A stretch of 34,033 nucleotides of DNA from a virus, in the IMG/VR virus record IMGVR_UViG_3300044734_000050, positions 1 through 34,033 of that record. The stretch is one strand, 5' to 3'. The notes beneath the pieces are model-generated. The model was not told the origin of the DNA and searched no databases. It saw nothing but the letters and a program-made list of their open reading frames with translations. The translations under genes were made by a program, and so were the position numbers. Shown here piece by piece: positions 1,686-22,057 of the stretch (the first letter of the stretch is position 1; each line of letters opens with the position of its first letter).

Positions 1686-1690
1686 GGCGA

Positions 1691-3270: not shown

Positions 3271-3290
3271 TTCATTTCTCCAATTCGGGG

Positions 3291-3467: not shown

Positions 3468-3940
3468 ACCGGGCTCACGAATTCGAAGTGCATGGGGTCT
3501 TTGCGGCCCTTGTAGTCGCCGCCCCAGCGCGCGCCGTGCGCCTTGAAAGTGTCGACCACGATCTTACCGAGCGTCGTTTTCTGCACGTTGAAGCCGTTCG
3601 ACCCCGGCGATAGGTCCATCGCGCAGGCCCACGAATGGTTCGACCAGTTGCTCGAGCCTGCGATCGGCCGGATGTTGAAACAGCCGCCGAAGTCGCTGGC
3701 GCCGGTGGCGTCAACCTTCTTCTGGTCATGCCCGCAGGCATTCCAGATTTCGTTGAAGACGCTGAGGAAGGCCGCCGAGCACATCCGGTTGACGAGGATC
3801 GAGGGCATCGGATGCTTGGCGTAGTACATCTGGAACGGCGGCGTGATCCGGGTCAGGAACTTGCCCTGCCAGTCCGGCCGGTGAAAATCGCCATAAAAGG
3901 CATTCTTCGCAGCGGTGGTGTCTTTGGGCCACTTTTCCAT
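3464..3940 (-). CDS. Endolysin, M15-type L,D/D,D-peptidase (158 aa)
   Basis: The C-terminal half carries the zinc-peptidase signature of the M15 (VanY/D-Ala-D-Ala carboxypeptidase) group: NHSWACAMDLS gives His102 and Asp109, and DPMHFEF gives His151, the expected H-x6-D...H zinc site. The 158-aa length fits single-domain phage endolysins of this class, which cut peptidoglycan cross-bridges or stem peptides. There is no signal peptide, so release through a holin is expected. The ATG at 3940 follows GGGAGATA. A copy of the GTGCGTTGC motif lies 46 nt upstream, making this the first gene of the lysis module proper. Confidence 0.85.
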   Translation of the reverse strand: MEKWPKDTTAAKNAFYGDFHRPDWQGKFLTRITPPFQMYYAKHPMPSILVNRMCSAAFLSVFNEIWNACGHDQKKVDATGASDFGGCFNIRPIAGSSNWSNHSWACAMDLSPGSNGFNVQKTTLGKIVVDTFKAHGARWGGDYKGRKDPMHFEFVSPV

Positions 3941-4285: not shown

Positions 4286-6802
4286 TCAATTGCCGGTCAG
4301 GGCGCGCTGCGGCAGATGCGTGGTCGACGTCGTGGTCGAGGCGTGCAGCCAGCCGAATTCGACATACTTGCTGCCGCCCGCGCCGGCCTCGCTTGGGGTC
4401 AGGTTCTGCACGAAATCGAGATAGTTCAGCGTGCAGCCCGACGGGTTTGCCAGCCCGAGGCTGCCGGCATAGACCTGCGCCGGCTGCACCACATTGTTGA
4501 ATTGCGTGCCGGTGATGGTGCCGCAGGTGCCGTCGGCGCGGAACATCGCGACCACCCCCGAGGCCCGGTTGATGAACTTGTTGCCGGTCATGTGGATGGT
4601 GGCGCCTCCAGCGAGCAGGCCGTTCCCGGCGACGCCATCGGCCGAATCGAAGATGTTGCCGACGATGGCGACGGGCGCACCGGAGTTGGCGCTGACGTTC
4701 GCCATGACATTGTCGGCCTTGCCGCCGAACTTGTTGCCCTTCACCGTAAAGGAATTGGTCACGTACTGGCTGCTCGCTGACAGTCCGTTCCATTCCGCCA
4801 TGATGGTGTTGTCGGATATTTCAAGCGTGTGGATGCGATTGCCGGTCGCGGAGGATGCCAGGATTGCCGAGCCCCCGCTAGAACCGCCAGAGAGCAACTG
4901 CGCAACATTGTTCTTGATCATGTATCGGGCATCGGTGGCGCCGCCGTAGGGCGAGACCTTGATGCAGGATACGATCGATGCCGAAGTGGTCGCCGTGACG
5001 CAAGTATTTCCCTTGATAACGATCGACCCGCCCCACTGCCCGACCGCGGTAATGCCGCCGAAGCCATAGTCCGTCTTGTTGCCGATGGCCGACACGTTCG
5101 TAGCGTTGTTGATCACGATCGCGGCGCGCGCCAGCGAGGTATCCTCGTCCGACTGCTGGCCATAGATCAGGTTGCCTGCGATCAGGAACCGCCAGTCGTT
5201 GAAGCTCAAGCCTGAGTGGGTGCCGTCGCCGGCGAGGTAGATGCCCGTCGACCAAGGCCGGAAGATGGTGTTGTTCTCGATGCGCCCGATCGAAGGTGGG
5301 AAGCCGTCGGCATTGTTGTCGTAAACCAGGATCGGATAGGAATTATGCCCGGTGCCGAAGCCGTTGACGCAGTGATTGATATCCGCCGACGCAAAATTGC
5401 TCAGCAGGTTGCCCTCGATCACCGGCCGCAGATGATTGCCGTAGAGCACGGCGCCAAAGCACAAATATTGGCCGTCGATCTGGTTGTTGCGGATTACGGG
5501 ATTGATGACCTGACCGAAGCCGCCCGACGCAGAGAATATCGCGATTGCATAGTTGCCGTTGTTGCCGGGCGTTACGTCGGTCGGCACGTCGGCCAAAAAC
5601 GACTGGAACAGGCTGTCCGAAATCTCTACACCAGACATGCTGAGCGCGCTGCCCGTGGTCACGATCTTAAGCCAGTAATTGGCGTTGAAGCCGGATATCT
5701 TCATCCGGCGAAGCTTTATATTATCCGACGTGGCCACAGGCGATCCCTGGGTCACCAAAAGGCAGCCGGTCGAACTCACAGCCCAGGACGTAACCTGATC
5801 GCTGCCCTGGCACCAGAAATTCGAGAGCGTGATGTTCGACACATTCGCCGCCGAGAACACGGGAACGGCGGCACCCGTGCCTTTGATGATTGAAAATTCG
5901 CGGTCGGCTCCGATGATGTTGGTGTTGGCCGGAAGGCTGAGCGTGGTTCCGGTGATGCAGGCCGGGCCGGGCGGGATGTAGATCGTCTTGCCGGCCGAGC
6001 CGGTAATCATCGCTTGCAGCTGCGTGGCAAAATTGGTCACGCCGTCGCAAGTGAAACTGTAATCGGTCGGCGTGACGTAGGGTGCCGCCGACGCGCTGAT
6101 CGTGATCGGGTTGCTGCCGGTAAAACGAATGCCGGTGCCCGCGACGATGTTGTTTGTGATCGTAGTCGGCCCTACGCCGGTCAGCGCGATGCCGTTGCCG
6201 GCGATCAGCGACGACCCGGCGATGCCGACGCAGGACGTGAGATTGCCACCGCTGTCGAAGCATGCGCCCATGTTGGCGCGGCTGGCGAGGATCGGCAGCA
6301 CATTCAGCGTGTCGCCCGGAGGAGCCTGCACCGTGCGCGCCTGCCGGTCCCACAGTTCGCGGGTTTGCGCCTCAAGATCGCTGATGATCTGGTTGAAGTC
6401 CCGCGCCGACACGCCGCGGTTTTCGGTGACCTGCGAGGTGCGCCGCGGCCGGCGGGCGCCAACGATCTGCACGGTGCCGGTCTGCGGGGCGAGGAAGGTC
6501 AGCACCGCATTGGTGATCGGGCGCGGCAGGGTGGCCAGCGAACCCGACGGCGAGGAAATGGTCCAGTTCCCGGCCTGCGGAATCTGCACGCCGTTCACCC
6601 AGACCGTCAGCCAGTTGGCATAATCGGTGCTATCCCCGTAAAGCTGGAATCCGACCGAACAGGCGCAGGTCGAGGCGGAAAGGGTGTAGGTGGTGCGACG
6701 TTCGGCGTCTGGCAGCGCCGGCACGGGCGGCGGGGCCTGGGCAATTGCCGGGCTAAACCCGGCAATCAGGGCGAGGAACAGGGCTGCCAGCATCTTGCGC
6801 AT
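4286..6802 (-). CDS. Tailspike with T7-tail-like N-terminus and beta-helix, bearing a signal peptide (838 aa)
   Basis: Residues 1-22 form a Sec-type signal peptide (RKMLAALFLALIAGFSPAIAQ). Residues 35-165 resemble the N-terminal virion-attachment domain of T7-like tail fibres: a YTLSAS/VWVNGVQI beta region, then GVSARDFNQIISDLEAQ and a helix with RELWDRQART. From about residue 255 a DGVTNFATQLQAMI segment and many short repeats rich in N, G and I (NNTIF, GNTCV, GNIFD, GNKF) indicate a right-handed parallel beta-helix of the pectate-lyase type, probably a capsule- or LPS-binding or degrading spike. There are 14 cysteines, an even number. The motif lies 31 nt upstream. The signal peptide is very unusual for such a protein. 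Confidence 0.8.
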   Translation of the reverse strand: MRKMLAALFLALIAGFSPAIAQAPPPVPALPDAERRTTYTLSASTCACSVGFQLYGDSTDYANWLTVWVNGVQIPQAGNWTISSPSGSLATLPRPITNAVLTFLAPQTGTVQIVGARRPRRTSQVTENRGVSARDFNQIISDLEAQTRELWDRQARTVQAPPGDTLNVLPILASRANMGACFDSGGNLTSCVGIAGSSLIAGNGIALTGVGPTTITNNIVAGTGIRFTGSNPITISASAAPYVTPTDYSFTCDGVTNFATQLQAMITGSAGKTIYIPPGPACITGTTLSLPANTNIIGADREFSIIKGTGAAVPVFSAANVSNITLSNFWCQGSDQVTSWAVSSTGCLLVTQGSPVATSDNIKLRRMKISGFNANYWLKIVTTGSALSMSGVEISDSLFQSFLADVPTDVTPGNNGNYAIAIFSASGGFGQVINPVIRNNQIDGQYLCFGAVLYGNHLRPVIEGNLLSNFASADINHCVNGFGTGHNSYPILVYDNNADGFPPSIGRIENNTIFRPWSTGIYLAGDGTHSGLSFNDWRFLIAGNLIYGQQSDEDTSLARAAIVINNATNVSAIGNKTDYGFGGITAVGQWGGSIVIKGNTCVTATTSASIVSCIKVSPYGGATDARYMIKNNVAQLLSGGSSGGSAILASSATGNRIHTLEISDNTIMAEWNGLSASSQYVTNSFTVKGNKFGGKADNVMANVSANSGAPVAIVGNIFDSADGVAGNGLLAGGATIHMTGNKFINRASGVVAMFRADGTCGTITGTQFNNVVQPAQVYAGSLGLANPSGCTLNYLDFVQNLTPSEAGAGGSKYVEFGWLHASTTTSTTHLPQRALTGN

Positions 6803-6830
6803 GCGGGCAAGGGTGGCGAACGGCTATCTG

Positions 6831-6848
6831 TTCGCAACGCACCCGGAA
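6831..6848 (-). promoter_or_regulatory. Conserved intergenic motif, copy 2 (tailspike)
   Basis: The minus strand reads TTCCGGGTGCGTTGCGAA, with the core at 6834-6842, 31 nt before the tailspike ATG and 14 nt before the upstream stop codon is reached. GCGAAC at the 3' edge can pair with GTTCGC eight bases further on (6816-6821 with 6830-6835). The copy shares TTCCGG plus the core with copy 3. Confidence 0.65.
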
Positions 6849-6855
6849 CCGGAGC

Positions 6856-9800
6856 CTAATTCTTAGCCTTCATCGGGATGCCGAACGCGTGGTTGAAGCC
6901 TTCCTCCACCTTGTCAAAGAGGCGAGGGATATAGGGGAAGTTGGCACCCAAGGTGAACATTCGGCCCGCGTGGGTATCACTTTCGTTCCATTCTGACGGA
7001 TGGGTAGCGGCGCGCGCGACTTGCATCATATTTTTCAATTTTCCGTAGGTCGGCCCGAGGAACATGCTGGCAGCGTCTTGGCTCACAAACTTAGAAAGCG
7101 GTTTGTCGGCACCAATGACCCGGTAAATGTCGGCCTTGCCGCCCGTGGCCTTCGATAGAATCGAGTTGGAATCGTCGATCACACCGAGGATGCCGCCACG
7201 CGACACGCCTTCCTTGAACCAATCCTGCACCCGGTCGGAGGTCTTTTGCCCCGACGCCATGGTGTTGATCCGATAGGCCAGCATGCCCATGCCGACGGCG
7301 GTGATCAGCCCGGCCATCGTGCCGGCGTCGTGGCGCTGCAGGTTGCTGATCAGGATGCGCTGCGTCGCCGAGACGGTGAACTTCTTATACTGCACCAGCA
7401 CGTTAAAACCGGGCTTGCTCATGAACTTCGGGATTTCGCCATAGCCCGGCTGCACCACCGCGATGTCGACATCCCGCCCGACCGCGCCCCGGAACGCCCG
7501 CGCGGCCGCCTGATCGGTCCAGTTGCCCATGTTCGGCAGGATGATGCCCTTGACCCGCTCGCCGCCGTTGTTCGACCACTGCTCCCAGATCCGCGCGGCC
7601 TGCGCCTCGGTGATGTTGCCTTCGGCCAGGCGCTGGATTTGCTTCGCCGTCGCCTTGCCGGCCGCGACCGCTTCGGAGGCGCGCAGGATGTTGCTCGCCA
7701 CCGCATTCGTCGCCATCCGCTTCTGGATATCGGTCAGTGGCGCGAGCAGGTTCGCGATAAAAGCCTTGTCCGACACCCAGGTCAGCGCGCGCTCGAATTT
7801 CGAGTTCGGCCGGTAATGCTCGGCGATATCGGACAGGGCGTGGTTGCGCGAGGCCGAGTGCGATTCGATCCCGATGCCGAACGCCTTCCATTCATCGCCG
7901 GCGGCCTTCACCGCCGCCCATGCCTCGTGGTCCATCAGCGATGCCGCGAACGGCACCCAGGCATCCTTGAAGGCGGATTCGATGCCGTGACGGAACGCGA
8001 CGCCGGCGAAGTCCGGCAGCGATGCCACCGCCATGCCGTGGCTGGAAATGATGTTGTTGACCTTGAGGGCGTTCTGCGAGAACCGCGCCAGCCCTTGCAT
8101 GGTCGGATCGTAGCCGAAGGTGCCCCTGATCCGGTCGCGCATCGCGGCCACGTTGCGGATGTCGGAATCCATCTGCGACTTGAGCTTGTTCTGCGCGGTC
8201 TCGCTTTTGGCCTCGGCGCGCTTGGTCGCATAAGCGCCCTCGATCTCCTTCATCACCGCGGTCAGGTTCGGGTCGCCGTCGAACCTTTCGGCCAGCAGCG
8301 CGTCGGGCAGCACCGAGTGGGTGTAGGATTTCAGCGCTTCGGTAGCCGAGCGCCGCAGCCATGGTTTTGCCATCTCATAGGGAATGTCGATCTCGCGGTG
8401 CGCCGCATGACCGCGCAATTCTGGATCGCCGGGGCCGACCGCGCCGGTGGTCGAATCCGTGTCATACGGCAGCCGGCCTTCCGGGGTGCCGATGACGCGG
8501 CCGGCGATCTCCTCGGCGCGGGATTTGAGCTCCTGCCGGGATAGCTGCCGGTCGGATTCGAGGATGCGCTTGACGGCCTTGTCGATCGCCTTGTCGGCGG
8601 ATGAGAGGCGCTTCGCGTCCTGTCCGCGCCCCTCCTCGGCCTTGGCCCTCGCTTTCAACGCGGACTTTGCTTCGGCAACCGATTTGCCTTCCCACGCCGC
8701 GATTTCCTCCTCGATCAGCTTGCGGGTCTGATCGTGCACCGCATTGGCGCGGATCAGCGCGTCCTCATGGCCGCCCCGGAACAGGTCGTCGTCTTTCATC
8801 TTCGCCAGTTTTGCGGTGCTGGATTCGATGGTCGCCTGCGCCTCGGCGAGCCGGCTTGCCAGCCCCTCGATCCGGGCTTGCGCGCGCGCCTTTGTGGTTT
8901 GCGCGGCTTCCAGGTGATCTGTCCAGTCGCCGACGAAACGGTTCCAGTCAGCGCTGATCTTTTCTTTGTTCCAAAGGTGTGGCGCATAACTCTCGCCCGG
9001 GCGTGAGGTGGTTTCGTTGAACCCCTTGATCGACTTCGCTGCCCGTTCTTTGATCGGGTTGAAGCCGTTCTTCCTCATCCATTGCGCCATGGCGGCGACC
9101 TGCGGCGTCGGGTGCGCATCGCCGGTCGAAAGCGCGTCGTAAACCGCGGCGTTGAAGTCATCGAACGACATCTTGCCGGCAGGCGCCCGGCCGGTCATCC
9201 GCTGCACCAGCGTGGCCCCGTCGTCCTGCCCGAGATAGCTGCCCCACTGCTTGAGCATTTCCTGATCGGCCTGCCAGTGCAGCCCCTCGCGGACCTGTTT
9301 CAACTCGCGCTCGATGGTCGGCCCGCCGTACCGGGTTGCGGTCTGGCCTTCCTTGTTGGCCATCAGCATGATCGGCGTGTCGACCATTTCCGATAGCGCC
9401 GCCTTGGCCGGATGCACGCTGTTGGTCAGCACGTCGAGGTTCGGGAACATCTTCGACACGCCCTTGGCGACGCCGGGAATGCTGTCGAGGCCGTAGGGGA
9501 TCGGGGAGAGGTTGCGGGTGTCGGACGGCGCGGCACCGGCGGCCAGGGCTTGGCCGGTGCCGGGTTGCAGGTCAACGGTGGTTTCGAAGCCTTCGCCGGC
9601 AGACACCTTTTCACCGCCGACCCTCGCTCCCGTTACTCTTTCGCCCGAGATTTTGGTGATCTCCGGATGATCGATCTGGAATTGCTTTAAGATGGCGCGC
9701 AGGTCCGCGGGTCCGATGGAATTCTTTCCCCCTCCCGGAGCATAGATATCCGCGATGCGCGCAGTGTCTCCGTCGAATTTGACACTGACGGCCGCAACCT

Positions 9801-10665
9801 CCTTACCGGCAGCATCTTTGACGCTGAAGGATTTCTCACCTCTTTTTTCCGTGCCCCATTCATCGGGTTCAAATCTGAATTTTGGTTCCGGAGGGGCATG
9901 CACCGCATCGGCTATATTGCCCGACGGCCCAGTCATGCCCGGATCAGGCCCGGGCGTGCTTTCTTCCAGCACGCCATTGTGCCGCGACAGTTTGACCCGC
10001 CCGGCATCCAGCGTGCCGAGGCCTTTGTCGAGCAGCCCTTCCCGCGCCAGCAGGGCATAGCCGCCGGCGCCGATCAGCGCCGACAGCAGGGTCGAGGAGC
10101 CGACATTGATGGCCGATTCCGATAGCGTCCGTTCGGGCTGGCTGGCCTGCAGCAGGGCTTCCTGCGCGGTAGACTGCATCAGGGCCACCTTGCCGACCGA
10201 CAGGCCCAGATTAGCCGCCCTGCCCGCCACAGCCGCCTCCCGCGCCAGCCGCACGGCGTTGCCCATCGGCAGGAACATGGTCGGAGCAACCAGCCCCATC
10301 CGCAGCCCGGCCACGGTGCCATTCCAGCCCGACGCCGCGATGGCCTGCTTTTCCTTCTCCCGCTGAGTGATCTCTGCCCATATCGCCTGCGATTCTTGGG
10401 GCGACGTTGATCCCAAAAATAACGAGCCGTGCAGGCGCAGAGCCGTGTCGTCCGGCCAGCTTTTCAGATCGTCGACGGGGTTGTAGCCTGGCACCGGGGT
10501 GTAACTGCCGCGGCTCATGTACTGGATCATCGACCCGAGTTCATTCCCGGTGTGGAAAAGCGCGGTTTCCAGTTCCGGGTTTGTCGGCGGCGCGGGAACG
10601 GGTTTGGGCACCTCGCCAAGGCCGGGGCGGAATCCTATGCCGGCTTCCTCGTTAAAATCGCTCAT
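6856..10665 (-). CDS. Large internal virion (ejection) protein, gp16-like (1269 aa)
   Basis: Size and position, after the gp14- and gp15-like genes and before the tailspike, match the largest ejected core protein of T7-like phages, which helps DNA cross the cell envelope. Residues 110-210 are Gly/Ala-rich and moderately hydrophobic (SALIGAGGYALLA). Residues 265-352 form a compact alpha/beta segment that looks inserted. Residues 580-720 are a long charged coiled coil (RLAEAQATIESSTAKLAKMKDD). The C-terminal third is helical with several hydrophobic patches. I noticed no cysteine. The start overlaps the upstream stop. No lytic transglycosylase motif is apparent here; that activity is in the neighbour. 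Confidence 0.7.
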   Translation of the reverse strand: MSDFNEEAGIGFRPGLGEVPKPVPAPPTNPELETALFHTGNELGSMIQYMSRGSYTPVPGYNPVDDLKSWPDDTALRLHGSLFLGSTSPQESQAIWAEITQREKEKQAIAASGWNGTVAGLRMGLVAPTMFLPMGNAVRLAREAAVAGRAANLGLSVGKVALMQSTAQEALLQASQPERTLSESAINVGSSTLLSALIGAGGYALLAREGLLDKGLGTLDAGRVKLSRHNGVLEESTPGPDPGMTGPSGNIADAVHAPPEPKFRFEPDEWGTEKRGEKSFSVKDAAGKEVAAVSVKFDGDTARIADIYAPGGGKNSIGPADLRAILKQFQIDHPEITKISGERVTGARVGGEKVSAGEGFETTVDLQPGTGQALAAGAAPSDTRNLSPIPYGLDSIPGVAKGVSKMFPNLDVLTNSVHPAKAALSEMVDTPIMLMANKEGQTATRYGGPTIERELKQVREGLHWQADQEMLKQWGSYLGQDDGATLVQRMTGRAPAGKMSFDDFNAAVYDALSTGDAHPTPQVAAMAQWMRKNGFNPIKERAAKSIKGFNETTSRPGESYAPHLWNKEKISADWNRFVGDWTDHLEAAQTTKARAQARIEGLASRLAEAQATIESSTAKLAKMKDDDLFRGGHEDALIRANAVHDQTRKLIEEEIAAWEGKSVAEAKSALKARAKAEEGRGQDAKRLSSADKAIDKAVKRILESDRQLSRQELKSRAEEIAGRVIGTPEGRLPYDTDSTTGAVGPGDPELRGHAAHREIDIPYEMAKPWLRRSATEALKSYTHSVLPDALLAERFDGDPNLTAVMKEIEGAYATKRAEAKSETAQNKLKSQMDSDIRNVAAMRDRIRGTFGYDPTMQGLARFSQNALKVNNIISSHGMAVASLPDFAGVAFRHGIESAFKDAWVPFAASLMDHEAWAAVKAAGDEWKAFGIGIESHSASRNHALSDIAEHYRPNSKFERALTWVSDKAFIANLLAPLTDIQKRMATNAVASNILRASEAVAAGKATAKQIQRLAEGNITEAQAARIWEQWSNNGGERVKGIILPNMGNWTDQAAARAFRGAVGRDVDIAVVQPGYGEIPKFMSKPGFNVLVQYKKFTVSATQRILISNLQRHDAGTMAGLITAVGMGMLAYRINTMASGQKTSDRVQDWFKEGVSRGGILGVIDDSNSILSKATGGKADIYRVIGADKPLSKFVSQDAASMFLGPTYGKLKNMMQVARAATHPSEWNESDTHAGRMFTLGANFPYIPRLFDKVEEGFNHAFGIPMKAKN

Positions 10666-13600
10666 GGCTGCGGCATGCCGGTGTTGCCGGTGCGCACCGC
10701 CTCGACGCCGGTCAGCTTGCCGCGCAGGGCCGCCTCGTGCTTGGCCATGTACTTTGCGGAATCGAAGGTGATGCGGTCAGGCAGCACGTCGATATCGCCG
10801 TTGCCGCGCTTGATGGCCACGAAATAGGACGGCGGGCGGCCGCCGCTGATCTCGCCTTCGGTGCGGCTGTCCGACACCAGTCCGGCGATCGACCAGCTGG
10901 TGCGCGGTGACGACCCCTTGCCCGGCACGTCGGGGTGCTTGCGCATCGCCGGGCCTTGCGAGGCAGTAACGAAATCGGTCAGCTGCTCGCCGATCCAGTT
11001 CGGCGCGCCTTCGATGGGGCGGTTATAGTGCTCCGGCGGGAGGCGCATCAGCTGATTGCCAGCGGCTTCGGACGGGCCCCAGGTCGAGGCCAGCCGCTTC
11101 ACCGCCGCATCGCTGGCCTTGTCCGCGGGCAGGCCCATGGTCCGCAGCTGGGTATAGGTCGCGCTGTAATCGTTCACCAGCGCGCTGCCGGTCAGGGCGT
11201 CGAACGGCACCCTCGGCGTGTTGCCGGTGATGCCGCCGAGCAGCCATGAGCCCGTGCCCATCTTGTAGGCCATATCGGACGGCGAGACCGTCTTGACCTC
11301 CTTCTTGGCCGCCTCGACCGCCTGCTCGCGGGCTTTGGCCGTGGCCGGGTCATCGGACTGATTGAGCAGCTTGGCGAGTTCCGTCGCGCCGAAACTGCCC
11401 TTGAGCGCGTTCCAAGCCTGCATCTTATCGATCGACGACTTGCCCAGCGCCTGCTCGGCGCGCGCGGCGTTCTGCTGCCACTGCTTGTCGACCACGGCGT
11501 TCGCGGTCGACATCTTCACCGGGTCGAGGCTGGACTGCATCGCGGTCAGGGTGTCGGTAAAGCCTTTTTGCCCGAGCAGCTTTTCCATGTCCTCAGCGCG
11601 CAAGGTGGTCGCGACCTGGGCCAGAACCTGCGCGCCGGCCGGTCCCTCAAGGGCCGCCTGCAGCTGCGGGACCTCATCCTTGGCCAGCACCGGCGGCGCC
11701 GGGCTATGATTCATGGCGGCGATGCGCTGCGAGGCGGCGATGCGCTGCGTCAGCGCGGCCGGGATGGTTTCGGGCTTGCCGGGATCGATCGGCGCCACCG
11801 GTGCGATCCAGCCGCGGTGCGCCGCTTCCTCGAACGGCTTCTCGGCCAGCCGCTTTTCGGACGCCTGCTGCTGATCGAAAAACGCGGCCGCAACCCGCAT
11901 GTGGTGCTGGTCCTGCCCGTCGGACATCTCGCGATATTGCGCCGTCAGCGCGGCGCGTTCCGGTGCCGGCAGCTTTGACACGATTTCGCTGTTGATCCGG
12001 CCGTCCATCGCCGCCACCTCGGCGCCGAGCTTTTCCGGGTATCGGGCGGCCTGCTGCCGCGCCAGCGCTACGTCGGCCGGATCGGGTGCCAGTCCCGCAT
12101 CGACCGCCTTGCCGACGCCGCCGATGACAAGCCGCGCAGCCTGCACGGAACTGGTTTCGTCGGCCGCAATGGCGCGCACCGCGGCGGAAATCAGGTACGG
12201 GTTGCGCTGCACCTGCTCATAGGTAAAGCCTGCCCCGCCATTGGCCGCCGGCGCGATGCCGCGGCCCGAGCCCGCCGGCTGCCGCCCACCCGGCAGCGAC
12301 GACCACTGGCCGGACAGTTGCCGCGGCACGTCCGAGATCGCCGCCTGATCGCCGGACTTGAGGACGCCGAGCAGGTCTTTGCCGGTTTTGGCCTTGTATT
12401 CGGTCTGCGCCAGATCCCACGCGGCGGCGTCTTGGTTCTCGGGGGAGAAGTCTTTCAGGCCGAGTTTCTTCTTTTGCGCGTCCCAGGTCGATCCGAGGAA
12501 CTGGTAGCGGCCGGCCGCGGATGATGTCTTGCCGGCGTCGGGGCCGGAGGTGATCGGCTCATCGACGCGGGGATGATCGGCAAAGCCTGCAAACAGCTTG
12601 CCGCCATACCGGACGTTGTAGAGCCCGGCGGATTCCGGCCCGGCAATGTGGTCGAGCAGCGCGCGGCCCTCGGGCGGGATGGCCTGGTTGACGGCGCCGA
12701 GCCGGTTGATGCCGAGTGCCTGCGCCTGCATTTCGAGCGGCAGGGTGTCGAGGCCGCGGCGCTGCTGCGCGACCAGCTGGTTGGCATAAATCTCATGCGC
12801 GCCCTTGGCATCGCCGCGGGACATCGCCTGCGCCATCGCCATACCGACGAGCGGATCGGTGGGCACCACCTTGCCGCTGGCCAGATTGTCTTTCAGCAGC
12901 GTGACATCTTCCTTGCCCGCCGCCACCCGTTCCAGCGCATCGGCGGTCAGGTATTGCAGCCGCGCCATGCCGTGCGAGTAGAGCCGGTTGCGGTCGACCT
13001 CACTCAGGTCCGGGTTTTGCAGGATGCTTTCGTTCAAGGCCTTTTGCGCGTCGCCCTTGCCCTTTTTGGTGAAGGTCTCGTCGATATGCGCGACGATGGC
13101 TTCGCCCTGCAGCAGACCTTTGAAATTCTTGACCTCAAGATCGATCTGCTCCTGCGGCATCTTGAACAGCGGATTGGTGCCGAGCGCCTTGTAGGAGGCT
13201 TGCAGCATTTCCAGCGACTGCTTGAACTGCGGCGTGTCGGTGCCGCCCGGCTGGCGCGCGAGGCCCTGCAGGGTGTTCTTATTGTCCGCGATCTGCGCCA
13301 TCAGCGATTTTTGCTGATTGGTAACGTCGAGTTGCCCGGCCGTGTTCGTGATCGCGTTGTAGTGCTGGGTCTGCAGCGAGTCGAAATGCTGCGCGATGCC
13401 CTGCCCCGTGACGCCGCCGCCGTGGTCCGCCAGGTACTTCGCCCTGTAGGCCGCCGCCGCCTTTTCGAATGCGGCAGGATCAGTCGGATATTCTTGGTGC
13501 AGTTCGTTCAATTGCTGCGAGATGACGTTGCCGTGCTGCGCGATGGTGCCCGCCACCACAGCGGCGTGGTAGGTCTCGCCCGCCCGGCCGAAGATCATCG

Positions 13601-13841: not shown

Positions 13842-14290
13842 CAGCCGATCCCCGCAATTCCTTTGGCGATGCCCGCCGCAGCGCCGATCTCGCCCGCGAG
13901 CAACGCCTTGCCGGCGGCGTCGCGGTAATAGGCCGCATCCGCCTTGTCCTGCCGCGACTGCGCCAAGATGCTGTCCACCGCCGTCAACCGCTGGCTCGTT
14001 CCCAGCGCTTCCTGATCCTCAAGGATGGCCGCGCCGGTCGGCGAATTCGGGTCGGCATGCGCGGCCGCGCGCACCGCCTCGATATTGCCCAGCGTATTAT
14101 TGAGGCTGCGGGTCATCTGCCCGCCGGTCTGCACGGCTTTGAGCTCGCCATATTTCGCGGCGTTGTCGAGTTTTTCGGCCTGCCAGTTGTCGGCCTCGGC
14201 GGTGCCCTGCGCCTTCAAGATGGTGGCATAGCCCTGCAACCCGATTGAGGCGAGCGAGCCTGCACCGGCACCGGCGCCCGAACTACCCAT
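13841..14290 (-). CDS. Internal virion protein, gp14-like (149 aa)
   Basis: The protein is small, Ala/Gly-rich and helical, with hydrophobic N- and C-termini (GSLASIGLQGYATIL at the start, LLAGEIGAAAGIAKGIAGIG at the end) and a central Gln/Asp/Ala helix. Size, composition and position between the tail tubular B-like gene and the transglycosylase-bearing core protein fit T7 gp14, the small ejection protein that enters the outer membrane. Sequence motifs alone would not name it; gene order carries the call. Confidence 0.6.
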   Translation of the reverse strand: MGSSGAGAGAGSLASIGLQGYATILKAQGTAEADNWQAEKLDNAAKYGELKAVQTGGQMTRSLNNTLGNIEAVRAAAHADPNSPTGAAILEDQEALGTSQRLTAVDSILAQSRQDKADAAYYRDAAGKALLAGEIGAAAGIAKGIAGIG

Positions 14291-14302
14291 GATGCGCTCC
14301 GT

Positions 14303-16594
14303 TCATAGCGTAACCTCGATGCCGATCTCGAGCAGTTGTAGCGGGCCCGGCGTATCCTTGATCAGCGCGACGCGGGGATCGAATGAGCTGCCGACGGTCG
14401 GGATTTGCTCGACCGTCTCGCGCTGCGGCGGCGGCAGGGTGGCGTCGTCGTCCTGGTTGTGGGCAGAAAACCGGGTCTGAGCCATCACGGTGCCGAGCGG
14501 CGGCGAGGTGCGGGTGACCTTGCCCGAGAACAGCCGCGCCAGCACAAAGCCGGTCGAGTGGATCACATAGACCGCGAAAGACGCGATCTGCCGCAATCGC
14601 ATCCGCTGGTGCATGTCGGCACCCGGGTTCGCCGCCGGGCAGAACGGTTCGACAACCGACGTCCATGGTTGGCCGGCCACCAGCGATGCCGCGCTCAAGT
14701 CCTCGCCGCCGCTGTTCTGCGGCACGATGAAGCCCTGCGCGTCGATGTCATAGGTGCCCATCGATCGCGTGCCCTGATCCATCAGCGAGACGGTCTGCCG
14801 CGGCAGCCACCACAGCGGCCCCAGCCCGGCCGCCGGCACCATCGCCGCGGGCAGGCTGTTCACCGACACCGCGCCGTCGAGGTAGCGGGTATCGTCAAGG
14901 ATTTCGCAGATGACCCGGCCGGAGTAGTTCGTGGTGAACAGCACGTCGGCATTGAGCGCGGCGATCCACTGGACCACGCCGGCGCCGGACCACGGGCTCC
15001 ATCCAACCGCGCTGAGCTTGCCGTCGCTGGCCTCGTATTTTCCGCACACCACGGTGCCATCGCCATTGAGCGCATAGACATAGCGCTCGTTGAACGCGCC
15101 ATCGGCATTCGGAGCTGCCAGCGCCACAATGTTGGAAAACAGATGGCCGGCGAATTCTGACAGCCTTTCAGTGCTGAACGGCCGGTAATAGGCGCCCGGC
15201 GCCATCACTGCCATAACGCTGTTGCCGTCGGCGCTGACATAGAAGATCGACGCTTGGGCGACGCGGGGCTGCACCCTGGCGGCGCCGTCGCCGGAAAGCA
15301 TCTGGAAACCGACGCTGCCGGGCTTGAGCGGATTCGATGCGTCGATCTTGATGTAAAAAACCTTGTGGTCGCAGAACACGAATTCCGAACTCTCCGGGCC
15401 CGGCACCACATGCTGCACCCGCGCCTTGTCAGGTGCCAATTCGAAGATGGCGCCGTTCGGCACGGTAGGGCCGCCGACGTAGCAATCGGTCGGCGAATTG
15501 ATTGCGGACCAGCCGATGCCGCCGGGTACGGCGGGAAAGTCGCAAAAGCCGAGCCGGTAGTTGTCGACGAAAACCGATTGCGGATAACCGCGATAGGCGT
15601 TCATCACCTCCTCGTCCCAGATCGTCACGCCGATGGTCGGCGCGTCGATTGCGCCCGCGCTGTTAACCTCGATGCTTCCGGCCGGCCCGACGACGGTTTC
15701 GGCCGTCTGGAACGCCACCGTGCGCTGTTCGTAATAGCTGACCGCGACCACGCTGGCGTTGGTCGAAAGCAACTGCACGCCGATGGCGCCGGAACTGATC
15801 GAGGTGATGATGCCCTTTGATCCCGACTTTGCGCCCTGGATCACGTCGCCGACCGAGAACGACGACCTCGGGTCGATCGCGATGCCAAGGTTCTGATGGC
15901 CCGGCAAGGCTTCCAGAATCGTCACATGGACGATCTGAGGACTGACGAATGAGGTGATCAACATCTGCCGGTTGACGAAGCGGAGCAGTGTGCCGACGTG
16001 CTGAGGCGTGAAGATCGCAGCGGACGCCGTTACCACCACATCCGTGCCGGTTTGTGCGGCCGGCAGCAGGGTGATGTTCTGCGGGCTGATGCGATAGAAA
16101 AAGGTGCGCTTCTGGCCGCCGACAACCAGTTCGTTGAAATCCGAACTCGTCCATGTCCCGATCCCATCCCAGGTCAGAATTTGCGGCTTCATCCCCGGAT
16201 AGGTGAAATAGATCGACAGACCAAGTTGCGCGATTACGATCTGGTTGACGGTCGCCGCCGTCCATTTGAAGGTTGCGGCGGATGAAAAGGTCGCCACCAC
16301 CACGTCGGCCGCGTTACGGATCTGCACCGTGGGCGTCGCGCCGACGACGCCGAAAGCCACCTTGAACAGGTTGCCGGGCGACACCGTGAATTCCTCGATC
16401 CGGTTGAATTCCTGGCTCGGGAACAGCGCTGAGCGGCCAGGCCGGTTCTGGATGATGCGCGAATTGCGGATGCGCATGTTCGACATCTGGCGCAAGCCGG
16501 CCTTGCGGGCCGGATGATCGTCAGCCCGCTTGAACTCGACATCTACCTCGCCATAGGAGAAGTCGCGCTGGGCACCCTGGATTTTCTGGGCCAT
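14303..16594 (-). CDS. Tail tubular protein B-like (gp12-like nozzle) (763 aa)
   Basis: The N-terminus (AQKIQGAQRDFSYGEVDVEFKRADDHPARKAGLRQMSNM, quoted here in parts: QRDFSYGEVD, RQMSNMRIRN, IIQNRPGRS) matches the start of phage nozzle/tail tubular B proteins, where the chain first lists ring contacts and then folds into a beta-propeller. The rest is beta-rich with repeated strand-turn units and VFCDHKVFYIK, SEFVFCDH and LWWLPRQ segments. The 763-aa length agrees with T7 gp12 (about 790). It lies directly after the adaptor gene, 4 nt apart. It would form the end of the short tail. Confidence 0.75.
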   Translation of the reverse strand: MAQKIQGAQRDFSYGEVDVEFKRADDHPARKAGLRQMSNMRIRNSRIIQNRPGRSALFPSQEFNRIEEFTVSPGNLFKVAFGVVGATPTVQIRNAADVVVATFSSAATFKWTAATVNQIVIAQLGLSIYFTYPGMKPQILTWDGIGTWTSSDFNELVVGGQKRTFFYRISPQNITLLPAAQTGTDVVVTASAAIFTPQHVGTLLRFVNRQMLITSFVSPQIVHVTILEALPGHQNLGIAIDPRSSFSVGDVIQGAKSGSKGIITSISSGAIGVQLLSTNASVVAVSYYEQRTVAFQTAETVVGPAGSIEVNSAGAIDAPTIGVTIWDEEVMNAYRGYPQSVFVDNYRLGFCDFPAVPGGIGWSAINSPTDCYVGGPTVPNGAIFELAPDKARVQHVVPGPESSEFVFCDHKVFYIKIDASNPLKPGSVGFQMLSGDGAARVQPRVAQASIFYVSADGNSVMAVMAPGAYYRPFSTERLSEFAGHLFSNIVALAAPNADGAFNERYVYALNGDGTVVCGKYEASDGKLSAVGWSPWSGAGVVQWIAALNADVLFTTNYSGRVICEILDDTRYLDGAVSVNSLPAAMVPAAGLGPLWWLPRQTVSLMDQGTRSMGTYDIDAQGFIVPQNSGGEDLSAASLVAGQPWTSVVEPFCPAANPGADMHQRMRLRQIASFAVYVIHSTGFVLARLFSGKVTRTSPPLGTVMAQTRFSAHNQDDDATLPPPQRETVEQIPTVGSSFDPRVALIKDTPGPLQLLEIGIEVTL

Positions 16595-16597
16595 GGG

Positions 16598-17236
16598 TCA
16601 CCAGCCGTCTGAGCGATCGGCCGACCCGCCCCATGGCCGCCGTCCCCGCCGCGCCGCCGTCATGCGCGAGCGAAACAGCGCCCGCTTGGGCTTCTGCATG
16701 TCGTGGCGGGATTTGGCTTGCGCGAGGATATGTTCGGCGGCCTGCCATAGCCGGTCGGCCTCGCCTGGGTCTTTGTGCAACCCGCGATAGATGCCGGACA
16801 TCACGAAAGCCTGCAGCGCCATCACGAAGGTGGGCGTGGCGGTGGTCGGGTCGGAGTTGGTCGAGAAGATGCCCTTGACGGTGACGACGCCGCCCTGCGC
16901 ATAGACCACAATCTGGTTATTGAGCAGATCCCACGCGGCCGGCCGGTCATCGACCATCACCAGGATGAGATGCACGAGGTCGGCCGGCAGGGCGAATGCG
17001 GTGTCGAAATTGGTGTCGCCGGGCACATCCCCGGTCGGCTGCAGCGTCCTGACTTCGGTCCCCGACATCCAGTCGTGCGACTCGAACATGTACGCCAACG
17101 CCCGCTCATAGGCTGGCGAGGCGCAATTCCACTCGTCGGAGCCGTCGTCGGCAACCGCGACGAGGTTATCCCCGGTCTGTGACAGAGCCGAGTTGATCAG
17201 TTCAGTTTTTGAGACCGGCCACTGGAATGCTGCCAT
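16598..17236 (-). CDS. Tail tubular protein A-like (gp11-like adaptor) (212 aa)
   Basis: The product begins AAFQWPVSKTELINSALSQTGDN and continues with SPAYERALAYMFESHDW and ALPADLVHLILV, the pattern of T7 gp11-type adaptors that sit between portal and nozzle (an N-terminal helix binding the portal, then W/Y-rich body). The length is close to gp11. A C-terminal basic tail (RSRMTAARRGRRPWGG) is extra. The gene is the first of the tail module, with the motif 33 nt upstream of the ATG. Co-transcription with the nozzle gene is likely. Confidence 0.75.
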   Translation of the reverse strand: MAAFQWPVSKTELINSALSQTGDNLVAVADDGSDEWNCASPAYERALAYMFESHDWMSGTEVRTLQPTGDVPGDTNFDTAFALPADLVHLILVMVDDRPAAWDLLNNQIVVYAQGGVVTVKGIFSTNSDPTTATPTFVMALQAFVMSGIYRGLHKDPGEADRLWQAAEHILAQAKSRHDMQKPKRALFRSRMTAARRGRRPWGGSADRSDGW

Positions 17237-17266
17237 GATGCGGCACGGTCGGCTCGGCGTGGCCTA

Positions 17267-17284
17267 GCCGCAACGCACCCGGAA
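17267..17284 (-). promoter_or_regulatory. Conserved intergenic motif, copy 3 (tail tube module)
   Basis: The minus strand reads TTCCGGGTGCGTTGCGGC, with the core at 17270-17278, 33 nt before the gp11-like start. It sits in a true intergenic gap of 57 nt between the fibre gene and the adaptor gene, so it is not constrained by coding. Confidence 0.7.
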
Positions 17285-17293
17285 GGAAGGCCG

Positions 17294-19768
17294 CTATCGC
17301 ACGCGGCGGGCTCTGATGTGGCCCCAGCCTTTGATGGTGCCGCCGGCGATGGCGGTTATCCCAACCAGATAAACCGTAGTGGTGCTGGAAACGCTGAAAC
17401 GCGCCGACGGCACGAGCGCTGTCACGTCGCTGACTGTGTTGGTGATGCCCGGGCCGTAGCTATAATATCCTTCGGCGCCGTTCGCTGTATTGGTCGTTGT
17501 CGAAAGGCTTGCGGAAAGGCTTGTGGTCGACGGGGTGCTGGTCCCCTCGAAGTGGGCGAAACCCGTGACGTCCCAATCTCCGGCCGTCAGCGAAATCGAG
17601 GTGATAGTGGCCGCGGTGCTGGTCGTATAGGTGATGCGCGATGCGTAGGAAAGTGTCCCTGACGTGAACTCGCCGACATTGCCCGCGGTCGCGCTTCCGG
17701 TGGTCGGCTCGCCCGGATACTGGCCGGAACTTACGGTCACGCCACTGACCTGCAGGACGTTGCCGGTGCCGGTCGAGTTGAACGTCTTGTTCGTGAGCGT
17801 GTCGGTCGTCGCCTTGCCGACCAGAGTGTCGGTTGCAGCCGGCAGCGTTAGCGTTCCCGATGCCGTCGCGGATGCGTCGAGGACCGTGGTGCCGCTGGTA
17901 GTGCCCGCGAGTTTGAACCTGCCGACGGCGCCGGCAGAGCCGAACGTCTTGATGCCGGTCACCGTTTCGGTGTTGCCGAGCGTCATTGCCGTGCCGCTTG
18001 AAGCTGGGCCGGTCAGCGTCACGCCGTCAGGGATCGTCAGCGTCGCCGCCGAAGCTGGCGCGGTGACGGTAACCTTGTTGATCGTGGTCGCCGTGGCCGC
18101 GCCCAGCGTCGGCGTGGTCAGGCTGGGCGACGTGGCAAACACCAACGCGCCGGACCCGGTTTCATCCGACACCGCAGTGGCCACATTGGCGCTGGTGAAC
18201 GAGCCGAGCGAGGTTGCATTGCCGACGCTAGTCACCGCGCCGGTCAGGTTCGCGTTGGTGGTGACGTTGCCGGCCGTCAGGCTGGCCGCGGTGCCGCTCA
18301 GGTTGGTTGCTACACCCGAAGATGGCGTTCCGAGCGCGCCGCCGTTGGTAACAAAGGCACCTGCCGATCCGATATTGATGGCCGCCGCAGTTGCCACGCC
18401 CGTTCCGAGACCCGACACGCCGGTGCTGATCGGCAGGCCGGTTGCGCCCGCGAGCGAGCCGGTGATCCCGCCGCCGACATTGAGCGCACCGCCGATGCCC
18501 GCGCCGCCGGTGACGACGAGCGCGCCGGTCGAGGTGCTGGACGAGACGGTGCTGGCCGGCAAGGTGAGGATGCCAGTATTCGTCAGCGTCATCCGCGAGG
18601 TGGTGCTTTCGGAAAAGTCCAGCGTGGTCGAGGACGCGGGGTTCTGGATAATCCAGCTCGCCCGGCTGTCCTGTCGAAGCTGGATGCCGGCGAGCGTGCC
18701 GTCCGGCGTGTTGACCATCAGCGACGTGGCATTGCTGTTTATGCCAGCGCCAAACTTGGCCGTGGTCGGAACGGTCAGAGCGCCAGCTACGTTCAAGGTG
18801 CCGTTGACGGTGGTCGCGGCGTTGAAGGCGAGCGTCTGATTGGCGATAACAGCGTCGAACACGCCCCAAATCAGGGCCTTGGCGTGAGCATCGGACTGGC
18901 TCGCGCGCGACTGATTGTCGATGATCAGGGTGTTGCTGGCGGTCTCATAGAAGCCCGCAAACTGGCCGAGGAACACATTGCCGCTGCCGGTGATGTTGGT
19001 CCAGCCGGCGCGATAGCCGAAGTAGGAATTGCCCGATGCGGTGGTTCCGGCCTGCCCGGTCTGCTGCCCGAAATAGCTGTTGTTCGCTCCCGACGTGTTC
19101 GGGAAGGCGGACTGGTATCCGAAGAACGAATTTCCCGTGCCGCTGGCGTTTGTGTTGTAGCCGGCCTGGGTGCCGACCATCGTGGTGGCGACAGCTCCGA
19201 CGCCGTTCTTATTGACCTCGGCGCCGACATATACGCTGTTGGTCGGATTGACGACGGAAGTCGCGACGTGGTGGCCGACCGCAGTGATGTTGCAGCCGGT
19301 GACATTGCTGAATATCGCATCGACGCCCATGGCCACATTGGAGCACGCCGTCGTGCCGCCGATGCCCGCCTGGTAGCCAAAGTAAGCATTGCTGTCGCCG
19401 GTGGTGGTGTTGTAGCCCGCGGCCGTTCCGAAAAAGGACTGCGCAAAGCCCGTGGTGTTGTTCTGGCCCGCGCTCGCGCCGACGAAGGTGTTGCCGTCGC
19501 CGTTGTGCGGTGGGACGGGAGCGACATTGTTCGCCCCGGCATTGGCGCCGATGAACGTATTGGTGGAGTAGTTGGTCCAGATGTGGAGGTAGGTGCTGAC
19601 GTAGATGCCGTTCGGATCGTTGAACGCGTTGGCGCGGACCCACGATGTATTAGCGATGCGGTCGCCGCTGTCGGTGGCCGGCGCGGTCGGTGAGATCAGC
19701 GCCAGTTGCGCCGAGACAAGCGTCGGCGCCAGAGCGAGCGCGAGGGCAAGCGCAGCGCGGCGGAACAT
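17294..19768 (-). CDS. Exported tail-fibre-like protein with YadA-head-like repeats (824 aa)
   Basis: Residues 1-20 form a signal peptide (MFRRAALALALALAPTLVSA). Residues 68-275 carry about ten short repeats of the type NTFIGANAG, NTFVGASAG, NSYFGYRAG and NVFLGQFAG, as in YadA-like trimeric adhesin heads and some phage fibres. A Gly/Ser/Thr-rich shaft follows with repeats such as VSSSTSTGALVVTGGAGIGG, GTPSSGVATNLSGTAASL and ATDTLVGKATTDTLTNKTF. The last 130 residues (GQYPGEPTTGSATAG to the end) look like a beta-rich receptor-binding tip. It has two cysteines. I use ATG 19768; GTG 19771 is adjacent. It is probably a trimeric fibre or a surface-displayed adhesin. Confidence 0.75.
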   Translation of the reverse strand: MFRRAALALALALAPTLVSAQLALISPTAPATDSGDRIANTSWVRANAFNDPNGIYVSTYLHIWTNYSTNTFIGANAGANNVAPVPPHNGDGNTFVGASAGQNNTTGFAQSFFGTAAGYNTTTGDSNAYFGYQAGIGGTTACSNVAMGVDAIFSNVTGCNITAVGHHVATSVVNPTNSVYVGAEVNKNGVGAVATTMVGTQAGYNTNASGTGNSFFGYQSAFPNTSGANNSYFGQQTGQAGTTASGNSYFGYRAGWTNITGSGNVFLGQFAGFYETASNTLIIDNQSRASQSDAHAKALIWGVFDAVIANQTLAFNAATTVNGTLNVAGALTVPTTAKFGAGINSNATSLMVNTPDGTLAGIQLRQDSRASWIIQNPASSTTLDFSESTTSRMTLTNTGILTLPASTVSSSTSTGALVVTGGAGIGGALNVGGGITGSLAGATGLPISTGVSGLGTGVATAAAINIGSAGAFVTNGGALGTPSSGVATNLSGTAASLTAGNVTTNANLTGAVTSVGNATSLGSFTSANVATAVSDETGSGALVFATSPSLTTPTLGAATATTINKVTVTAPASAATLTIPDGVTLTGPASSGTAMTLGNTETVTGIKTFGSAGAVGRFKLAGTTSGTTVLDASATASGTLTLPAATDTLVGKATTDTLTNKTFNSTGTGNVLQVSGVTVSSGQYPGEPTTGSATAGNVGEFTSGTLSYASRITYTTSTAATITSISLTAGDWDVTGFAHFEGTSTPSTTSLSASLSTTTNTANGAEGYYSYGPGITNTVSDVTALVPSARFSVSSTTTVYLVGITAIAGGTIKGWGHIRARRVR

Positions 19769-20154
19769 CACTCGAACTCGTAAATGGTAAGGGCCGAGCC
19801 GCCGGCCGAGGCGATGCCGACCCAGGCCGAAGGCATGGCCTGCTGAGGTCCGCTCGCCGTGCTGCCGGAGATTTCCACCCGGTCATAAGGCAGGATGGTG
19901 ATGCAGCCCGCGCCGTTGACCACCGCGACGATGTTGCTGCCGCCGGAATTCGCCGTCCGGTTCGGCCCGATCGGGCAGACCGCGACCTTGGCAGTATCGT
20001 TCGGGTTGTGAAAAATCAGCTTCTTGCGTGCCGGGTTATTCGCCAACACCTGGGCCGACGACGTGCCGACCGTCATCGGATAGACGTAGGGCGCGGTCTG
20101 GGCCGCGGCCGGCGCGATCAGCACCAGCAAGGCGAGGACGGCGTATTTCAGCAT
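19768..20154 (-). CDS. Small exported beta-rich protein, fibre cassette (128 aa)
   Basis: Residues 1-19 form a signal peptide (LKYAVLALLVLIAPAAAQ). The mature 109 residues are a predicted beta-sandwich: VLANNPARKKLIFHNPNDTAKVAVCP recalls the NPARRxLxIxN segment seen in phage accessory fibre or decoration domains (recollection). Two cysteines, in VCPIG and GAGCITI, could form a disulfide. The stop overlaps the start of the fibre gene (TGATG), so the two are probably translated together. It may be a fibre base, cap or chaperone. Confidence 0.6.
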   Translation of the reverse strand: MLKYAVLALLVLIAPAAAQTAPYVYPMTVGTSSAQVLANNPARKKLIFHNPNDTAKVAVCPIGPNRTANSGGSNIVAVVNGAGCITILPYDRVEISGSTASGPQQAMPSAWVGIASAGGSALTIYEFE

Positions 20155-20236
20155 GGCGCGGTGTCCTGTCGATCGCGGCGACGATACTGCCCGGCCAAGT
20201 TCATGACAACCGCAAGTCGTGCCGCCCTGTGGCGTA

Positions 20237-20809
20237 TCAGAAAAAACCGTAAATGATGGTCAACGTCAGGTTGGCCGAATTGCCGGCGGTGTGCCCGGTA
20301 ACCCATATCGGCTGCACTGCCGTCTTGGAGAACACCCGGAGCAGGAGCGCGGAATCGAGCACGGTGGTCAGGCAGTTTGCGGCGCAGACCTTGGCGGAAA
20401 CAATGTCGGCCGCGCCGGTGGTCTGGCCGATGTCGATGCCGCCGGTGACCGCGTTCGCCGTGGTGTTGTCGATGACGATGGCGCTGATGTATGCGCTGGC
20501 CGGAAGCGATGCGACCTGCACGCTGGTGGTCGAGGTCAGCACGCCGGTGGAAACCACCATCGACTGCAATTCGCCATTGGAGGCGTACCCCATCGACTGG
20601 AAATCGGCGAGATCGCTTGACGGGATCAGCACGCAGCCGCGGTTGTTCGTGCTGTAAAGATTGCCGCTGGTCGGCGCCTTGACCTGGGCCGGCCCGGCCG
20701 CCGCGCCGGCGGGGATGGGGGCGCATACCCTGATCTGCGAGGCATCCGCCGGATTGAGCGACAGCAGGCCCGCAAGGGCAACGAGGCCGATCAAAGCAAG
20801 TTTGCGCAT
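20237..20809 (-). CDS. Exported beta-rich virion-type protein, fibre cassette (190 aa)
   Basis: Residues 1-24 form a signal peptide (RKLALIGLVALAGLLSLNPADA). The mature part has SGNLYSTNNRGCVLIPSSDL, then a long beta-rich domain with PASAYISAIVIDNTTANAVTGGIDIG and LLLRVFSKTAVQPIWV; that second segment recalls small phage structural proteins lying near capsid genes. Four cysteines, an even count, include a C-x3-C pair (VCAANC). The 82-nt gap to the next gene holds no motif or terminator that I can see. It is the first gene of the exported cassette, just downstream of the capsid module. Confidence 0.55.
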   Translation of the reverse strand: MRKLALIGLVALAGLLSLNPADASQIRVCAPIPAGAAAGPAQVKAPTSGNLYSTNNRGCVLIPSSDLADFQSMGYASNGELQSMVVSTGVLTSTTSVQVASLPASAYISAIVIDNTTANAVTGGIDIGQTTGAADIVSAKVCAANCLTTVLDSALLLRVFSKTAVQPIWVTGHTAGNSANLTLTIIYGFF

Positions 20810-21507: not shown

Positions 21508-21551
21508 TGTCTTGCTCCTTGCAGACGAGAAAAGCGATGCAACCCGGCGGA

Positions 21552-21995: not shown

Positions 21996-22057
21996 CGGGC
22001 TCTCCTCTTGGTCGAAACAGGGACGGTCGCCTTATGGCGGCCGCTAAACCGATGGCG

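What the first reader, a model, noticed from the sequence alone, without database searches (positions are those of the whole stretch)
4286..20809. Tailspike and three fibre-cassette proteins carry Sec signal peptides
The tailspike (4286-6802), fibre (17294-19768), 128-aa protein (19768-20154) and 190-aa protein (20237-20809) each begin with a classical signal peptide. Three have an apparent A-x-A/AQ cleavage site and the fourth (190 aa) ends PADA. In podoviruses these proteins normally fold and trimerise in the cytoplasm. Their cysteine counts are even (14, 2, 2, 4). The large core proteins, by contrast, show no cysteine on my reading. A coherent guess is that adsorption proteins are exported, oxidised and joined to virions at or after lysis. 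Alternatively they are displayed on the host to block superinfection or act as adhesins.
Basis: partly seen in the sequence, partly recalled or inferred. Interest (0 to 1): 0.85.

Follow-up and report, generated by a model that had tools for sequence, protein, structure and literature searches.

The report
Phage tailspikes carrying secretion signal peptides
In a group of short-tailed viruses of soil bacteria (mainly Bradyrhizobium), the proteins that stick the virus to its host carry the address tag for export out of the cell's interior, together with paired cysteines typical of exported proteins, which suggests that these viruses finish their tails outside the compartment where their heads are built.

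Summary
The genes lie on the minus strand. The tailspike, fibre, 128-aa and 190-aa proteins all start with Sec/SPase I-type signal peptides.

In the tailspike the signal precedes a conserved domain whose predicted fold matches T7 gp17-type fibre anchors solved inside podovirus tails. Among 59 unique N-terminally complete sequences (soil viruses, Bradyrhizobium genomes), 54 have the signal (53 by rule, one by eye). Its core drifts (27% identity), while the cleavage site (A/S/V-x-A|Q) and its 8-residue distance to the anchor are kept. Homologues of the 128-aa protein and the fibre have it too. Core virion proteins do not (1 of 133 calls), nor do 17 tail or fibre proteins of other phages.

Five SP-less relatives have no cysteine in the anchor; the closest ones start naturally about where cleavage would start the others. 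SP-bearing ones mostly carry a C-x-C that is lost only as a pair, and a second, relocating pair.

Best reading: spikes are exported, cleaved, oxidised in the periplasm, and docked onto virions at lysis. Export, cleavage and docking are inferred, not shown. I found no published description, in a partial library. Mechanism confidence about 0.5; that these are true signal peptides, about 0.93.

The parts
4286..6802 (-). tailspike, 838 aa: signal peptide + T7-type anchor + body taken to be a beta-helix
   Evidence: ORF; N-terminal ~240 aa conserved at 55-69% best-segment identity, C-terminal part different in relatives. The beta-helix body is inferred from the look of the sequence, not predicted here
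6740..6802 (-). tailspike signal peptide, residues 1-21, cleavage AIA|Q
   Evidence: rule score 7.8; signal in 54 of 59 unique sequences, cleavage 8 residues before LPD in 48 of 55
6308..6739 (-). mature N-terminal anchor domain, about residues 22-165
   Evidence: AlphaFold2 model of residues 22-244; Foldseek and VIA-align best matches are podovirus tail-fibre anchors in the virion: 9efk, 8es4, 7ey9, 7boz
6659..6667 (-). C46-x-C48 motif
   Evidence: 27 of 33 aligned rows have both, 6 neither, none only one; absent in all five SP-less relatives
6230..6262 (-). second cysteine pair C181/C191
   Evidence: two in 24 of 32 rows, zero in 6, one in 1, three in a probably frameshifted row (L042); the first cysteine is relocated in L021, L024, L026, L032 while the pair is kept
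17294..19771 (-). fibre, 825 aa; signal peptide at 19709-19768, cleavage VSA|Q
   Evidence: rule score 6.3; relatives L011, L017, L019, L035, L036 all have a signal, L075 by eye; PHROG tail fiber match E=1e-7
19768..20154 (-). p128; signal peptide at 20101-20154, cleavage AAA|Q; overlaps the fibre start
   Evidence: rule score 7.45; four relatives all with signal and two cysteines, the second relocated in L017 and L035; L073 also
20237..20809 (-). p190; signal peptide at 20741-20809, cleavage ADA|S
   Evidence: weak by rule (Asp in c-region); relatives L006 and L010 pass the rule, L002 has a long hydrophobic N-terminus
14303..16594 (-). tail tube B (nozzle), presumed docking partner; no signal
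   Evidence: PHROG tail protein E=8e-27; 0 of 18 with signal
16598..17236 (-). tail tube A (adaptor), presumed docking partner; no signal
   Evidence: PHROG tail protein E=4e-18; 0 of 13 with signal
2755..3321 (-). holin-like protein; internal start MKPFIVAVAIALLAFVDPSFA|Q looks like a signal followed by a membrane helix
   Evidence: sequence; not accepted by the rule because of Asp; holin role inferred from position and helix only
3464..3940 (-). endolysin, M15 peptidase, no signal peptide
   Evidence: Pfam Peptidase_M15_4 E=1.6e-14

Best explanation
Inferred mechanism: the adsorption proteins of this Bradyrhizobium podovirus group (tailspike, fibre, p128 and probably p190) are made as preproteins and exported by Sec. 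Signal peptidase I cuts at AxA|Q and frees about the N-terminus that SP-less relatives have naturally. The proteins then fold and form disulfides in the periplasm. Heads and tail tubes are assembled in the cytoplasm without them, and the spikes dock through their T7-type anchors on the tube A/tube B nozzle when lysis mixes the two compartments. Shown here by sequence: presence and conservation of the signals, the near-fixed cleavage position, the cysteine pairs and their association with the signal, the predicted anchor fold, the place in the tail operon, and absence of signals in core proteins. Inferred: export, cleavage, oxidation, and the time and place of docking.
For: 1. Conservation found without using the signal: a model of the mature domain alone (A3) found 9 full-length relatives in 266 Bradyrhizobium genomes, all with a signal, and 47 viral loci by patterns inside the domain. 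Of 59 unique N-terminally complete sequences (window included), 54 have a signal: 53 by rule, L108 by eye. 2. Signal-like evolution: identity 27% in the n/h-region against 65% at -3..-1 and 64% in the anchor; -1 is A in 54 of 55; +1 is Q in 51 of 55; distance to LPD is 8 in 48 of 55. 3. SP-less L086, L056 and L111 start 9, 8 and 5 residues before the same point. 4. Cysteines: SP with CxC 43, SP without 11, no SP with CxC 0, no SP without 5; Fisher p=9e-4 (relatedness not corrected). Pairs are lost or moved together. 5. Anchor fold matches fibre anchors solved in virions. PHROG 1640 (tail protein) links SP-bearing members (5 of 29, best E 1.4e-4) with SP-less ones (E 5.7e-9 and 4.9e-16), one of which matches Pfam Phage_T7_tail just under its cut-off. 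6. Core proteins: 1 of 133 flagged (overlapping loci counted apart). Marine and Pseudomonas phages: none of 29 proteins read, 17 of them tail or fibre. 7. Spike genes sit among TTA, TTB and internal virion protein genes in most loci.
Against: No experiment; no SignalP run. My rule finds only half of known E. coli exported proteins, so it is specific but home-made. A fast-folding trimer could fold before export. The viral scan used a pattern at the cleavage site (AQ[ATV]PPPVP); searches did not. 11 SP-bearing anchors lack CxC, so that disulfide is not the only reason for export. The Fisher test ignores kinship, and three of the five SP-less rows are distant. How spike and virion meet before the lysate is diluted is unaddressed.
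Confidence: 0.5

Rival explanations
1. The spike and fibres are exported but act on the infected cell or its surroundings instead of, or besides, on the virion: exopolysaccharide depolymerase at release, removal of receptor so that progeny are not trapped, block of superinfection, or adhesin of the lysogen.
For: Signals and cysteine pairs fit secreted enzymes; relatives occur in Bradyrhizobium genomes; in L014 and L036 the spike lies near integrase and primase genes without portal or tail-tube genes found.
Against: The docking domain is the most conserved part while the C-terminal body is swapped; the gene usually stays in the tail operon; the SP-less L086 spike with the same anchor sits directly behind TTB. 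A purely secreted protein would not need the anchor.
Confidence: 0.2
2. The hydrophobic N-terminus is not used for export: the proteins fold and assemble in the cytoplasm as in T7, and the N-terminus stays in the virion (for example as a membrane-touching element) or is clipped later, or only a fraction is exported.
For: T7-type fibres dock in the cytoplasm (established knowledge); some spikes have a signal but no CxC (11 of 54); SP-less members do without it.
Against: Positive n-region, drifting hydrophobic core, kept A/S/V-x-A|Q site and spacing are features of cleavage, not of a structural helix; the same kind of N-terminus precedes unrelated proteins; paired cysteines go with it.
Confidence: 0.22
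3. Artefact: wrong start codons or chance hydrophobic N-termini in high-GC DNA.
For: High-GC sequence gives many spurious ORFs; some signals were called from GTG or TTG starts.
Against: Conserved across 54 unique sequences with site and spacing kept; core proteins 1 of 133; shuffles 0.3-1.3% for the three accepted proteins.
Confidence: 0.03

Closest known systems
T7 gp17-type tail fibres and podovirus tailspikes (Pfam PF03906 N-terminal domain; PHROG 1640)
   Same: Anchor fold at the N-terminus, operon place near tail tubes and internal virion proteins, swapped C-terminal body
   Different: Known members begin at the anchor and are cytoplasmic; here a signal peptide plus a short proline-rich linker precede it, and cysteine pairs are added. 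The window protein has no PF03906 hit
Sec-exported or signal-anchored endolysins (Lys44 of fOg44, SAR endolysins)
   Same: Tailed-phage proteins that use host Sec (PMC6116005)
   Different: Those are lysis enzymes, not virion parts; the endolysin of this window has no signal
Filamentous phage coat protein G3p
   Same: Virion adsorption protein made as a preprotein with a signal sequence (PMC8310372 abstract)
   Different: Filamentous phages assemble in the membrane; here heads with T7-like portal and packaging genes are expected to form in the cytoplasm
Lom-type proteins of lambda
   Same: Signal-bearing gene located among tail genes (PMC12309495)
   Different: Lom is an outer-membrane barrel without virion anchor
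Pantoea stewartii WceF
   Same: Bacterial glycan enzyme with a tailspike-like fold; the paper also mentions a signal peptide (title, abstract and term counts only; not read)
   Different: Bacterial gene, no phage tail operon; anchor domain not examined

Membership tests
T7 gp17-type tail-fibre anchor | fold of the N-terminal anchor domain | tested here: met
   9efk Z 8.1 over 113 residues (rmsd 6.4), 7ey9 Z 8.1 over 66 (rmsd 2.1), 7boz (T7 gp17) Z 7.1 over 116 (rmsd 6.9); podovirus tail entries fill ranks 1-10. Z near 8 is modest and model pLDDT is 70
T7 gp17-type tail-fibre anchor | match to Pfam PF03906 | tested here: not met
   none of 29 members; only a distant SP-less relative, L058, at 23.9 bits against a cut-off of 25.2. 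Hence called a fold-level relative, not filed as a PF03906 member
T7 gp17-type tail-fibre anchor | domain lies at the extreme N-terminus of the primary product | tested here: not met
   preceded by a signal peptide in 54 of 59
T7 gp17-type tail-fibre anchor | present in the virion, docked on the tail nozzle | not testable with these tools
   needs virion proteomics or cryo-EM
Sec/SPase I preproteins | n-, h- and c-region with A-x-A-type site | tested here: met
   (own rule, not SignalP)
Sec/SPase I preproteins | translocation and cleavage | not testable with these tools
   needs experiment
Disulfide-bonded exported proteins | cysteines in pairs that are lost or moved together | tested here: met
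   CxC 27 both, 6 none, 0 single; second pair 24 two, 6 zero, 1 single, 1 with three; p128 second cysteine relocated

The most novel reading that the evidence does not exclude
Tailed phages of Bradyrhizobium complete their virions outside the cytoplasm: receptor-binding proteins are sent through Sec, oxidised in the periplasm, and attached to spikeless particles only at lysis, so that spikes in a lysate are shared goods that could also decorate particles of other phages or of mobile islands coding only the spike.
Probability: 0.4. Interest if true: 0.92.

Novelty: new variant of a known kind. Interest (0 to 1): 0.8.

Why it matters
Textbook assembly of tailed phages is wholly cytoplasmic, and the lack of signal peptides has been used as support for a phage origin of receptor-binding proteins (PMC6199706). 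A conserved signal in front of a virion anchor contradicts this and makes a direct test possible: where and when a tail spike joins its particle. It would affect annotation (such spikes may be read as host exoproteins), expression of phage depolymerases (fold them in the periplasm), and thinking on phenotypic mixing of host range. The natural SP-less sister (L086) is a ready control.

Tried and rejected
Pfam on the four proteins: nothing useful; PHROGs: only the fibre matched well. tblastn of tailspike, p190 and p128 against 50,697 phage records: no match, so the family is nearly absent from isolated phages; only Microcystis phage Mwe-JY08 carries a distant SP-less relative. p190 in viral contigs: no relatives by its own search, three found beside TTB loci. 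PDB by sequence profile: none. p128 fold: looks like a jelly roll, best Z 9.0 to an endospore appendage subunit but close to many unrelated jelly rolls, so no function read from it. The fibre's 94-283 repeats match marine phage fibres without signals; taken as a negative control. Even cysteine count alone I rejected as evidence (chance about 1 in 16); pair loss and relocation are the better test. Idea that L014 and L036 are phage satellites: not decided, since L014's contig continues into genes that look, by eye, siphovirus-like. Literature searches found no description of Sec signals on tail fibres; the library lacks most subscription journals, and SignalP screens inside other papers cannot be searched.
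Full report
WHAT WAS CHECKED. The window is a 34,033-base virus record. The four genes are on the minus strand. Neighbours define a T7-like podovirus: portal-type head-tail connector (Pfam E=2e-21), major capsid protein, tail tube A and B, M15 endolysin, and large proteins in the place of internal virion proteins. Each of the four proteins begins with a positively charged n-region, an uncharged hydrophobic stretch and a small-residue cleavage site. My rule accepts three; p190 needs the eye because of an Asp two residues before the cut. The rule was calibrated on E. coli proteins: 7 of 14 exported proteins found; 2 of 64 others flagged, both N-terminal helices of membrane proteins.

IS IT MORE THAN CHANCE? 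Yes. The tailspike's N-terminal about 240 residues are shared with other soil viruses at 55-69% identity while the rest is swapped. To avoid finding signals because I searched with them, I built a model of the mature domain only (A3). In 266 Bradyrhizobium genomes it found 9 full-length members, all with a signal, plus one with a truncated anchor that also has a signal, and a decayed fragment. A viral scan with patterns inside the domain gave 47 loci. After removal of duplicates, 59 N-terminally complete sequences remained, window included: 54 with a signal (53 by rule; L108 by eye), 5 without. In the same loci, core virion proteins gave 1 flag in 133 (overlapping loci counted apart), and 29 proteins of Pelagibacter, Roseobacter, Methylophilales and Pseudomonas phages, 17 of them tail or fibre, gave none.

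HOW IT EVOLVES. The n/h-region keeps its character but not its letters (mean pairwise identity 0.27), while the last three residues (0.65) and the start of the anchor (0.64) are kept. Ala is at -1 in 54 of 55, Gln at +1 in 51 of 55, and the cut is 8 residues before the anchor's LPD in 48 of 55. SP-less relatives begin 9 (L086), 8 (L056) and 5 (L111) residues before this point. So cleavage would restore about the N-terminus of the SP-less form. L086 lies right after the stop of tail tube B and truly lacks a signal. On the tree, SP-less L086 and L111 lie inside the SP-bearing set, so the signal has been lost or gained more than once; L111 is a long branch and its place is unsure. No other strong signal-bearing ORF was seen on the coding strand of L086's 16 kb, whereas L073 carries five in a cassette.

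CYSTEINES. C46-x-C48 is present as both or neither (27, 6, 0 single in 33 rows). A second pair (C181, C191) is present as two in 24, zero in 6, one in 1; one further row (L042, probably frameshifted) has three. In L021, L024, L026 and L032 the first cysteine has moved about six residues while the pair is kept. In p128 the second cysteine is moved in L017 and L035 with the count still two. CxC never occurs without a signal (43, 11, 0, 5; Fisher p=9e-4; the test does not correct for relatedness, and three of the five SP-less rows are distant). All five SP-less anchors have no cysteine at all.

THE ANCHOR. AlphaFold2 on residues 22-244 gives pLDDT 70, with model residues 11-100 mostly 74-94. Best matches are fibre anchors inside solved podovirus tails: LME-1 (9efk, Foldseek E=1.9e-4, Z 8.1), 7ey9 (Z 8.1), HRP29 (8es4, Z 7.9) and T7 gp17 (7boz, Z 7.1). 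By sequence, PHROG 1640 (tail protein) joins SP-bearing and SP-less members, and SP-less L058 matches Phage_T7_tail just under the curated cut-off. No member of the SP-bearing set matches that Pfam model, so I call it a fold-level relative.

MECHANISM. Best supported: export by Sec, cleavage, oxidative folding, docking at lysis. Export to the periplasm followed by docking is the simplest way to reconcile a conserved cleavable signal with a conserved virion anchor; spikes can be a last assembly step in other podoviruses (general knowledge of P22, not checked here). The rivals are action on the host surface, and unused signals; see the fields. The step no sequence can show is where the docking takes place.

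NOVELTY. Searches of the open literature found Sec signals on endolysins, on Lom and on a filamentous phage coat protein, but not on tailed-phage spikes; one paper uses absence of signals as support for phage origin. The library is partial, so prior notice cannot be excluded. I rate it a new variant of a known kind: known spike architecture with a new, conserved targeting module.

CAVEATS. The first viral scan used a pattern at the cleavage site; its loci are pooled in the 59 with those of the signal-independent scans. Loci from one contig were merged by sequence, not by name. The MAG labelled Salinibacterium (L041) is probably a binning error. Host assignment to Bradyrhizobium rests on relatives in its genomes, not on the window itself.

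Noticed in passing
L014 (IMGVR_UViG_2935801545_000003) and L036 (Bradyrhizobium cajani): A signal-bearing spike (and in L036 a signal-bearing fibre) lies near an integrase and primase or helicase genes, with small-terminase matches in L036, without portal or tail-tube genes found; perhaps a satellite supplying the spike in trans. In L014 the contig runs on into genes that look siphovirus-like, so undecided.
   Followed up: partly
L073:3891-9833: Five signal-bearing ORFs in one cassette with spike and p128; the whole set seems to travel together.
   Followed up: no
L018:14839-19480: Three further signal-bearing proteins (427, 245, 892 aa) downstream of the spike in another phage of the group, some with fibre-like repeats.
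   Followed up: no
window 4006-4275 (-), 1691-1951 (-), 1302-1730 (-): Small ORFs with predicted signal peptides near the lysis genes; 1302-1730 and 1691-1951 overlap.
   Followed up: no
window 2755-3321 (-): Holin-like protein may itself start with a cleavable signal before its single membrane helix.
   Followed up: no
window 20845-22065 (-): The 406-aa ORF joins two parts; the upper part overlaps ORF 21552-21995 (147 aa), which has relatives after the capsid gene in other phages, so the real gene here probably starts at the internal Met of MAARKEVWDLG.
   Followed up: partly
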